Below, in pieces: positions 40,923 through 42,410 of a DNA stretch of 64,000 nucleotides (the first letter of the stretch is position 1; the number at the start of each line of letters is the position of its first letter). The stretch spans positions 744,001 through 808,000 of the forward strand of contig NZ_LR130759.1 in the NCBI RefSeq assembly GCF_900292015.1, in the 5' to 3' direction. The notes beneath the pieces were generated by a model. It made no database searches, was not told the origin of the DNA, and worked only from the letters and a program-made list of their open reading frames with translations. The DNA comes from Mycobacterium basiliense (GTDB lineage Bacteria; Actinomycetota; Actinomycetes; Mycobacteriales; Mycobacteriaceae). A program made the translations under genes and the position numbers.

Positions 40923-42161
40923 GTGACTGTGTTCTCGGCACTGTTGCTGGCCGGGGTCTTGTCCGCGCTGGCGCTGGCCATAGGTGTTGCGGTCGGAACT
41001 CGGCTGTCACAGCGGGTCGTGCGACGCCGCGAACGAGCGGCCGCCGAGTGGACCGGGATCACCGTGGCGCAGATGCTGCAGCGAATCGTGGCGTTGATGC
41101 CGATGGGCGCCGCCGTGGTAGACAGCCATCGTGACGTTGTCTACCTCAACGATCGGGCCAAGGAGCTGGGCCTGGTGCGGGACCGGCAGCTCGACGACCA
41201 AGCCTGGAAGGCCGCGCGGCGCGCGTTGGGCGGTGACGACGTTGAGTTCGATTTGTCACCGGGCAAGCGCGCCGGTGGCAGGGCAGGTCTGTCGGTGCAT
41301 GGACAGGCACGGTTGCTGAGCGAGGAGGACCGACGGTTCGCCGTCGTCTTCGTTCATGACCAGTCTGACTATGCGCGGATGGAGGCGACCAGGCGTGACT
41401 TCGTGGCCAATGTCAGTCACGAACTCAAGACGCCGGTGGGCGCCATGGCACTTCTTGCCGAAGCCCTGCTGGCGTCGTCGGACGACTCCGAAACAGTTCG
41501 ACGCTTCGCCGAGAAGGTGCTGATTGAGGCGAATCGACTGGGAGACATGGTTGCGGAGCTGATCGAGCTGTCCCGGCTGCAGGGCGCCGAACGGCTACAC
41601 AATGTGACCGACGTTGACGTCGATACCATTGTTTCCGAGGCGATTTCACGCCACAAGGTGGCCGCCGACAATGCCGACATCGAGGTGCGCACCGATGCGC
41701 CCAGTGGGTTGCGCGTATCGGGGGACCAAACCCTGCTGGTCACCGCGCTGGCGAACCTGGTTTCCAATGCGATCGCCTACTCCTCACCGGGCTCGCCGGT
41801 ATCGATCAGCCGCCGCCGTCGTGGTGAAAATGTTGAGATTGCGGTCACCGACCGGGGTATCGGGATCGCGCTCGAAGACCAGGAGCGAGTCTTCGAAAGG
41901 TTCTTCCGGGGTGACAAGGCCCGCTCGCGGGCCACCGGTGGCAGTGGACTGGGGCTGGCCATCGTCAAACATGTTGCGGCCAACCACAATGGCAGCATTG
42001 GTGTGTGGAGCAAGCCGGGAACCGGATCCACGTTCACCTTGTCCATCCCCGCCATTCCGGCGGGTCCATCGCAGACGGGCGACGGCGAGCAGCCGGAGCA
42101 ACCGCGGGGACGCGATGTGCGGCCCAATAGGTCACAACGAGAGGAAGAGCTAAGTCGATGA
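40923..42161 (+). CDS. senX3: sensor histidine kinase SenX3
   Basis: A 412-residue phosphate-responsive sensor kinase. It has an N-terminal membrane helix (FSALLLAGVLSALALAIGVA), a PAS-like region (LMPMGAAVVDSHRDVVYLND), the phosphorylated His in FVANVSHELKTPVGAM, and the ATPase motifs NLVSNAIAYS (N box), VTDRGIGI (G1) and GGSGLGLAIV (G2). GTG 40923 is chosen because it gives VTVFSALLLAG, the start of the M. tuberculosis protein. It feeds the response regulator regX3 downstream across the MIRU repeats. Confidence 0.95.
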   Translation: MTVFSALLLAGVLSALALAIGVAVGTRLSQRVVRRRERAAAEWTGITVAQMLQRIVALMPMGAAVVDSHRDVVYLNDRAKELGLVRDRQLDDQAWKAARRALGGDDVEFDLSPGKRAGGRAGLSVHGQARLLSEEDRRFAVVFVHDQSDYARMEATRRDFVANVSHELKTPVGAMALLAEALLASSDDSETVRRFAEKVLIEANRLGDMVAELIELSRLQGAERLHNVTDVDVDTIVSEAISRHKVAADNADIEVRTDAPSGLRVSGDQTLLVTALANLVSNAIAYSSPGSPVSISRRRRGENVEIAVTDRGIGIALEDQERVFERFFRGDKARSRATGGSGLGLAIVKHVAANHNGSIGVWSKPGTGSTFTLSIPAIPAGPSQTGDGEQPEQPRGRDVRPNRSQREEELSR

Positions 42162-42410
42162 CCCGCGCAGAGCGCAGCGATGAGAAGGAGTGGCGCTGAT
42201 GACCCGCGCCGACGACGCTGCAGAGCGCAGCGATGAGAAGGAGTGGCGCTGATGACCCGCGCCGACGACGCTGCAGAGCGCAGCGATGAGAAGGAGCGGC
42301 GCTGATGACCCGCGCCGACGACGCTGCAGAGCGCAGCGATGAGAAGGAGCGGCGCTGATGACCCGCGCCGACGACGCTGCAGAGCGCAGCGATGAGAAGG
42401 AGCGGCGCTG
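42158..42410 (+). repeat. MIRU-type tandem repeats between senX3 and regX3
   Basis: Five head-to-tail units: a 41-base unit (42158-42198) lacking 12 internal bases, then four 53-base units (42199-42251, 42252-42304, 42305-42357, 42358-42410). Every unit begins ATGACCCGCGC and ends with a GAAGGAG site and GCTG. Each encodes a tiny ORF, 13 codons in the first unit (MTRAERSDEKEWR) and 17 in the others (MTRADDAAERSDEKEWR, or ...KERR in units 3-5). Each stop TGA overlaps the next ATG, and the last leads into regX3. This is the MIRU arrangement known from the M. tuberculosis complex. Confidence 0.95.

What the first reader, a model, noticed from the sequence alone, without database searches (positions are those of the whole stretch)
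42158..42410. Chain of translationally coupled mini-ORFs (MIRU) joins senX3 to regX3
The senX3 stop overlaps the first mini-ORF ATG (ATGA), then five units each supply a ribosome-binding site, a 13- or 17-codon ORF and a TGATG overlap into the next, the last leading into regX3. Ribosomes could therefore travel from senX3 to regX3 through re-initiation, so unit number may set the kinase:regulator ratio. This arrangement is known in the M. tuberculosis complex; here it occurs in what looks like a non-complex species, with four 53-bp units plus one 41-bp unit that lacks 12 bases.
Basis: partly seen in the sequence, partly recalled or inferred. Interest (0 to 1): 0.7.

Follow-up and report, generated by a model that had tools for sequence, protein, structure and literature searches.

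The report
MIRU mini-gene chain between senX3 and regX3
Between two regulatory genes of a mycobacterium sits a known kind of repeat made of tiny overlapping genes that can pass ribosomes from the first gene to the second; the repeat type and the idea are already in print, but the comparison across relatives made here suggests that evolution keeps the chain unbroken.

Summary
The senX3 stop overlaps an ATG (42158). Five mini-ORFs follow (13, 17, 17, 17 and 17 codons; units of 41 and 4 x 53 bp), each with a Shine-Dalgarno match and a stop/start overlap, ending on regX3's ATG at 42411.

It is a MIRU array. MIRU coupling is in print (2025 review citing Supply 1997). A MIRU between senX3 and regX3 is also in print outside the M. 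tuberculosis complex (M. avium subsp. paratuberculosis), so this is a new member of a known kind.

New here: among 151 distinct senX3-regX3 loci, 59 have a direct overlap and 84 carry an insertion of at least 13 nt. In 79 of those 84 the mini-ORF chain is unbroken. Its units have 16 lengths, all 3n+2. On a tree about 39 in-frame changes stand against 3 out of frame. Selection therefore probably keeps the hand-over open.

MIRU also puts a stronger SD before regX3 (mean -9.7 against -6.4 kcal/mol). Mycolicibacterium sediminis has an unrelated 3 x 53-bp chain in the same place.

That unit number sets the kinase:regulator ratio is untested; number changes often and is zero in many relatives.

The parts
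40917..42161 (+). senX3 (sensor histidine kinase); the ORF list opens at TTG 40917, the true start is probably GTG 40923 (inference)
   Evidence: histidine-kinase models match below their curated cut-offs; named SenX3 by its place before RegX3
42158..42199 (+). mini-ORF 1, MTRAERSDEKEWR*, 41-bp unit (12 bases missing, in frame); ATG overlaps the senX3 stop (ATGA)
42199..42252 (+). mini-ORF 2, MTRADDAAERSDEKEWR*, 53-bp unit, TGATG junction
42252..42305 (+). mini-ORF 3, MTRADDAAERSDEKERR*, 53-bp unit
42305..42358 (+). mini-ORF 4, MTRADDAAERSDEKERR*, 53-bp unit
42358..42411 (+). mini-ORF 5, MTRADDAAERSDEKERR*, 53-bp unit; its stop TGA shares the A of the regX3 ATG
42395..42408 (+). tail of the last unit: SD AGAAGGAG (42395-42402, 8 nt before regX3) and GGCGC (42404-42408), the 5' arm of the possible junction hairpin
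   Evidence: SD -8.9 kcal/mol; hairpin (suggestive only)
42411..43094 (+). regX3 (OmpR-type response regulator)
   Evidence: best PDB match 2oqr 'Sensory transduction protein regX3', E 6e-143

Best explanation
A MIRU array has entered the ATGA overlap that joined senX3 directly to regX3. Each unit is a self-contained relay: a start that overlaps the previous stop, a short stop-free frame, an SD, and a stop that overlaps the next start. A ribosome leaving senX3 can pass along the mini-ORFs to regX3, so the original coupling survives the insertion. Shown: the anatomy, its retention in 79 of 84 inserted loci, and its retention through many length changes. Inferred: that ribosomes really use it, and that selection acts to keep SenX3 and RegX3 synthesis linked. 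Also inferred: the array raises regX3 initiation, because the unit brings a stronger SD than the native senX3 tail. The peptides are probably by-products.
For:: anatomy; 79 of 84 insertions of 13 nt or more keep an unbroken chain of 1 to 6 mini-ORFs; 59 of 151 loci have the direct overlap; a random indel of 1-30 nt keeps the chain in 32% of 15,800 trials; at least 79 architecture changes on the tree, chain broken in 5 loci (5 separate changes); 16 distinct unit lengths in intact chains, all 3n+2; 39 in-frame changes against 3 out-of-frame ones; all 128 junctions of intact chains keep NTGA at the next start; the same genome's 10 other MIRU sites all end in a stop overlapping the next gene's start (8 with an own mini-ORF in register, 1 fused in register to purK, 1 with its ATG out of frame), before frr, purE, carA, rpsH, opcA, ipdE2, lipE and others. 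SD before regX3 averages -9.67 with an insertion (n=86, L012 and L018 included) and -6.41 without (n=59); background in senX3 -2.97; an unrelated 3 x 53-bp chain at the same junction in M. sediminis. PMC12548453 (passages): the review gives this mechanism for MIRUs.
Against: No expression data. Five inserted loci are broken (L016, L189, L209, L218, L222) and live without the full chain. Shuffling each insertion at fixed length still gives a chain in 8,088 of 16,800 trials (48%), so for single units the signal lies in length phase and rarity of stops, not in the letters. Third codon positions vary only slightly more than the others (entropy 0.50 against 0.39 and 0.36, 28 units), so the peptides show no clear constraint. 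Printed work reports promoter activity in the M. tuberculosis intergenic region (PMC4213456, passages). The array RNA is no more folded than shuffles (z -0.51). The SD energies take the best duplex in a 15-nt stretch without a rule for spacing.
Confidence: 0.75

Rival explanations
1. Dial: the number of units sets the SenX3:RegX3 ratio through loss or gain of ribosomes at each junction.
For: Units are near identical and their number varies from 1 to 6 in intact chains. A copy-number difference in M. avium subsp. paratuberculosis vaccine strains has been linked in print, as a suggestion, to expression (PMC3599157, passages).
Against: At least 53 changes of unit number, counting none as a state, and 29 of presence or absence on the tree, and 59 of 151 loci with a bare overlap, argue against a tightly set value. 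Each unit has its own strong SD, so the flux should level off after a few units (inference).
Confidence: 0.2
2. Passenger: the MIRU is a mobile repeat that settles in NTGA overlaps. The chain is kept only because breaking it would harm the downstream gene; the array adds nothing of its own.
For: Eleven MIRU sites in this genome, many before housekeeping genes; frequent gain or loss; the review says that the coupling probably lets MIRUs insert with minimal impact. Fully compatible with coupling.
Against: The stronger SD in front of regX3 predicts some effect. The unrelated chain in M. sediminis suggests that such arrays can be favoured at this junction.
Confidence: 0.5
3. Promoter or RNA element: the array mainly drives or stabilises a separate regX3 transcript.
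For: PMC4213456 (passages) cites promoter activity of the M. tuberculosis intergenic region and senX3-independent regX3 expression; PMC7884335 (one passage) repeats a proposal that MIRUs may stabilise upstream mRNA and control downstream translation.
Against: No sigma-70-type site in 41900-42500 (0 found, 0.1 expected; weak, since mycobacterial promoters often deviate). It does not explain the 3n+2 rule.
Confidence: 0.15
4. Assembly artefact.
For: Tandem repeats are prone to it; the exact copy number could be off.
Against: One-contig genome; the same kind of array in many other assemblies.
Confidence: 0.03

Closest known systems
MIRU in the senX3-regX3 intergenic region of the M. tuberculosis complex (Supply et al. 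1997, not held; cited in PMC12548453 and PMC4213456)
   Same: Same place, MIRU repeat, 53-bp unit class; an internal ORF coupled to the next gene (the review's description of MIRUs).
   Different: M. tuberculosis strains have 77-bp units with or without a 53-bp unit (PMC4213456 passage: three 77-bp in H37Rv, two 77-bp plus one 53-bp in CDC1551); here 41 + 4 x 53.
MIRU3 of M. avium subsp. paratuberculosis (PMC3599157, passages)
   Same: Variable repeat between senX3 and regX3 in a species outside the complex.
   Different: Other species; amplicons there differ by 53 bp (244 and 297 bp, given as 1 and 3 copies).
Coupled small proteins of mycobacteria (RTGA overlap; Shell et al. 2015, PMC4633059, passages)
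   Same: Short frame ending in the start codon of the next gene.
   Different: Found there from leaderless transcripts; no tandem array, and MIRU is not mentioned in the main text (0 occurrences).

Membership tests
MIRU | Homologous repeat of about 50-100 bp, often in tandem | tested here: met
   53-bp period; homologous insertions in related genomes
MIRU | Several dispersed copies in the genome | tested here: met
   15 BLAST matches at 11 sites in G000
MIRU | Between co-directional genes, oriented with them | tested here: met
   All 11 sites are followed by an ORF of 120 aa or more in the repeat's direction; a preceding ORF of that size in the same direction was seen at 7 of the 10 other sites (L084, L085, L086, L088, L092, L094 and L095, where the repeat is fused to purK), and none was found at L083, L091, L093
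MIRU | Internal ORF whose stop overlaps the next start | tested here: met
   Window: 5 of 5 mini-ORFs; other sites: 10 of 10 overlaps, of which L094 has its own ATG out of frame and L095 is fused to purK
MIRU | Insertion into an existing NTGA overlap | tested here: met
   59 of 151 loci have the bare overlap where others carry the insertion; the act of transposition itself was not tested
Translationally coupled gene pair | Stop and start overlap by 4 or 1 nt | tested here: met
Translationally coupled gene pair | Both genes on one mRNA | not testable with these tools
   no RNA data
Translationally coupled gene pair | Downstream translation depends on upstream translation | not testable with these tools
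   needs reporters or ribosome profiling

The most novel reading that the evidence does not exclude
The array is a selected translation relay that boosts and insulates RegX3 synthesis. The first unit swaps the weak native SD for a strong one. At each junction a small hairpin (GGCGC-NGATGACCC-GCGCC) holds the stop/start pair in its loop, so that mostly arriving ribosomes open it. Further units make RegX3 output progressively independent of SenX3 output. M. sediminis and a relative evolved the same device independently by duplicating the start of regX3.
Probability: 0.15. Interest if true: 0.65.

Novelty: new member of a known kind. Interest (0 to 1): 0.42.

Why it matters
MIRU coupling has been proposed since 1997 (Supply et al., as cited in PMC12548453). 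The comparison here turns it into a measured rule: unit lengths change often, but almost only by steps that keep the relay open. With PMC3599157 it also contradicts a printed statement that MIRUs at this junction exist only in M. leprae and the M. tuberculosis complex (PMC4213456, passage), and it points to environmental species in which the mechanism could be tested.

Tried and rejected
The idea that the peptides themselves matter: third positions vary only slightly more than the others in 28 single 53-bp units; not supported. The idea that the array is a strongly structured RNA: z -0.51; rejected for the whole array. Junction hairpin: 32 of 51 distinct junctions form all 5 pairs (14 form 4, 5 form 3; a few of the 51 are senX3/first-unit junctions). 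Only the outermost pair covaries (48 of 51 paired, 36.6 expected by shuffling, 0 of 2000 shuffles as high); the other four pairs do no better than shuffles. On the tree (63 loci) the two positions go the same way in about 4.6 of 6 independent pairs, never the opposite way, p about 0.06. Kept as suggestive only. Sigma-70 promoter in the region: none. Ribosome profiling of MIRUs in print: the three papers found did not seem to report it, judged from titles and abstract starts (not opened); searches added only the review. The library lacks most subscription journals, and Supply 1997 and Rifat 2014 (Microbiology) are not held. The MIRU search is insensitive: it missed G001 and G015, which carry insertions at senX3-regX3 (L177, L209).

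Full report
WHAT IS THERE. senX3 ends with TGA at 42159-42161, inside ATGA, and the overlapping ATG at 42158 opens the first of five mini-ORFs. Starts are at 42158, 42199, 42252, 42305 and 42358, and regX3 starts at 42411. TRF gives period 53, 4.7 copies, 99% matches. The frames have 13, 17, 17, 17 and 17 codons. From the second on, each start, regX3's included, is preceded by AGAAGGAG (-8.9 to -9.2 kcal/mol to the anti-SD); the first has -5.8. The junctions from the second on read TGATGA, two in-frame stops in a row. If the first were lost by mutation, the second would still overlap the ATG by 4 nt. RegX3 is secure: its best match among solved structures is 2oqr, named regX3, E 6e-143. SenX3 is named by its place; kinase models match it below their cut-offs.

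THE SAME GENOME. The genome is one contig of 5.6 Mb with 15 MIRU-like matches at 11 sites. At the 10 other sites the repeat's last stop overlaps the start of the next gene: by 4 nt at nine, and by 1 nt at L094, where the repeat's own ATG has fallen out of frame. Upstream, the preceding gene's stop overlaps the first MIRU start at L085, L086, L088 and L094; at L095 the MIRU remnant has become the C-terminus of PurK; at L084 and L092 a 9- and a 12-nt gap remains; at L083, L091 and L093 no upstream ORF of 120 aa was found. Downstream genes are frr, purE, carA, rpsH (S8), an enoyl-CoA hydratase family gene, ipdE2, lipE, opcA, a DUF3000 gene and a gene like a 2-oxoacid oxidoreductase beta subunit (just below the model's cut-off).

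RELATIVES. A RegX3 search matched 390 of 396 genomes of the genus group; the best 150 places were listed. I fetched 140 of these. Besides the window's own, nine were left out: G164, which lay too near a contig end, and eight of the lowest-scoring (G333, G370, G125, G213, G201, G238, G368, G119). With the first 18 of the 80 named loci and the window this made 159 loci, 151 after eight duplicates were dropped. One named locus, L011, bears an Acidobacteria title but falls among the mycobacteria on the tree. The set is biased towards close RegX3 relatives; about 240 of the 390 matching genomes were not listed and not examined.

Of 151 loci, 59 have senX3 and regX3 directly overlapping (-4 or -1). 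Eight have other arrangements: gaps of 7 or 8 nt in six, L012, and L018. Eighty-four have an insertion of 13 nt or more, most of them recognisably MIRU by eye; a few short ones, such as L013, are not clearly so. In 79 of the 84 an unbroken chain of overlapping frames runs from senX3 to regX3, with 1 unit in 53 loci, 2 in 15, 3 in 5, and 4, 5 and 6 in 2 each. The five exceptions are L189 (an internal stop), L209 and L218 (length out of phase), L222 (55-bp units, so that the start lies 1 nt after the stop) and L016 (the chain reaches regX3 but starts after a gap behind senX3).

IS IT MORE THAN CHANCE. A random indel of 1-30 nt keeps a chain in 32% of trials. Shuffling each insertion at its own length keeps one in 48%, probably because stops are rare in such GC-rich DNA; the information is therefore mainly in length. 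On a FastTree of senX3 and regX3 DNA without the insertion, presence or absence changed at least 29 times, unit number (none counted as a state) 53 times and architecture 79 times, while the chain was broken in five loci by five separate changes. Unit lengths in intact chains take 16 values from 20 to 101 bp, all 3n+2. Summed over the 15 lengths other than 53 the tree needs at least 39 changes, against three out-of-frame changes (L209, L218, L222). A binomial with one third in frame gives about 1e-15. That figure is rough: some of the 39 are gains or losses of whole units, not indels, and the in-frame ones were counted from intact chains. All 128 junctions of intact chains keep NTGA at the next start.

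WHAT THE INSERTION CHANGES. The mean SD energy before regX3 is -6.41 kcal/mol in 59 direct-overlap loci and -9.67 in 86 loci with insertions (the 84 plus L012 and L018). The first mini-ORF has the weaker native SD, -5.61; random places in senX3 give -2.97 (no rule for spacing). So one unit should already raise re-initiation on, or entry to, regX3. Further units should matter less and less, because each brings its own SD (inference). A hairpin GGCGC-NGATGACCC-GCGCC around the junction is possible; the evidence is one covarying pair and is suggestive only. The whole array is not unusually folded.

A SECOND, UNRELATED CHAIN. In Mycolicibacterium sediminis (L018; a rapid grower, as recalled) the same junction holds three 53-bp units MTSVLIVED(I/T)YPEGTAL with TGATGA junctions, whose first 27 bases are those of regX3 itself. 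Its first ATG lies 2 nt after the senX3 stop, so the link to senX3 is near but not overlapping. In that genome the repeat matches nothing else but the first 27 bases of regX3, and the window's MIRU gave no match there (that empty answer has no positive control in that genome). Among 98 genomes of the genus one, G008, has a related short version ending in TAATGA at regX3. This looks like independent evolution of the same device, in few genomes.

WHAT IS KNOWN. The 2025 review PMC12548453 (passages) says that MIRUs occur in many mycobacteria, insert at start codons and couple an internal ORF to the gene, citing Supply 1997. PMC4213456 (passages) states that MIRUs at this junction exist only in M. 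leprae and the M. tuberculosis complex, and cites promoter activity there. PMC3599157 (passages) already has a variable MIRU between senX3 and regX3 in M. avium subsp. paratuberculosis. PMC4633059 (passages) reports that RTGA-coupled small ORFs are over-represented in mycobacteria. At E <= 1e-20 MIRU matches were found in 12 of 61 genomes: 12 of 37 in the window's own genus group and 0 of 24 in other genera; at this cut-off single diverged units are missed, as in G001 and G015.

VERDICT. A true MIRU array working, most likely, as a translation relay. The mechanism and the location are known. I did not find the genus-wide retention test, the SD exchange or the second chain described in the held library; the searches were (listings, two of them cut short, and passages of the papers named). 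The claim that unit number sets the kinase:regulator ratio is open.

Noticed in passing
L018:2340-2500 (Mycolicibacterium sediminis): Unrelated 3 x 53-bp mini-ORF chain whose units begin with the first 27 bases of regX3, between senX3 and regX3; a related short form in G008 (L270).
   Followed up: partly
L092 (G000:C1:1876234-1876291): A MIRU unit runs into frr (ribosome recycling factor), the factor whose low level favours re-initiation (PMC4633059, passage); a possible feedback.
   Followed up: no
L095 (G000:C1:1329425-1329470): MIRU remnant fused in frame to the C-terminus of PurK, keeping a 4-nt overlap with purE.
   Followed up: partly
L093 (G000:C1:1005157-1005214): MIRU before rpsH read in another frame than usual, passing a TAG of the normal frame, yet still ending in a 4-nt overlap.
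   Followed up: no
L157, L167, L169, L096, L101, L123, L175, L170, L202, L180, L188, L209: G-rich palindromes of the type GGGGGTACC..CCCGC..GCGGGGGA inserted at different points of the MIRU in different species, adding 24, 33 or 48 bp and so keeping the frame, except in L209; it looks like a second small mobile repeat.
   Followed up: no
window 13133-13247: 9-bp tandem repeat (GCAGAAGAC x 12.8).
   Followed up: no
window 28992-29098: Tandem repeat of 15 and 30-33 bp (CCAAGAAGGCC), perhaps a lysine/alanine-rich histone-like tail.
   Followed up: no
window 38061-39485 and 39990-40787: mshA (mycothiol glycosyltransferase) and phosphoglyceromutase upstream of senX3.
   Followed up: yes
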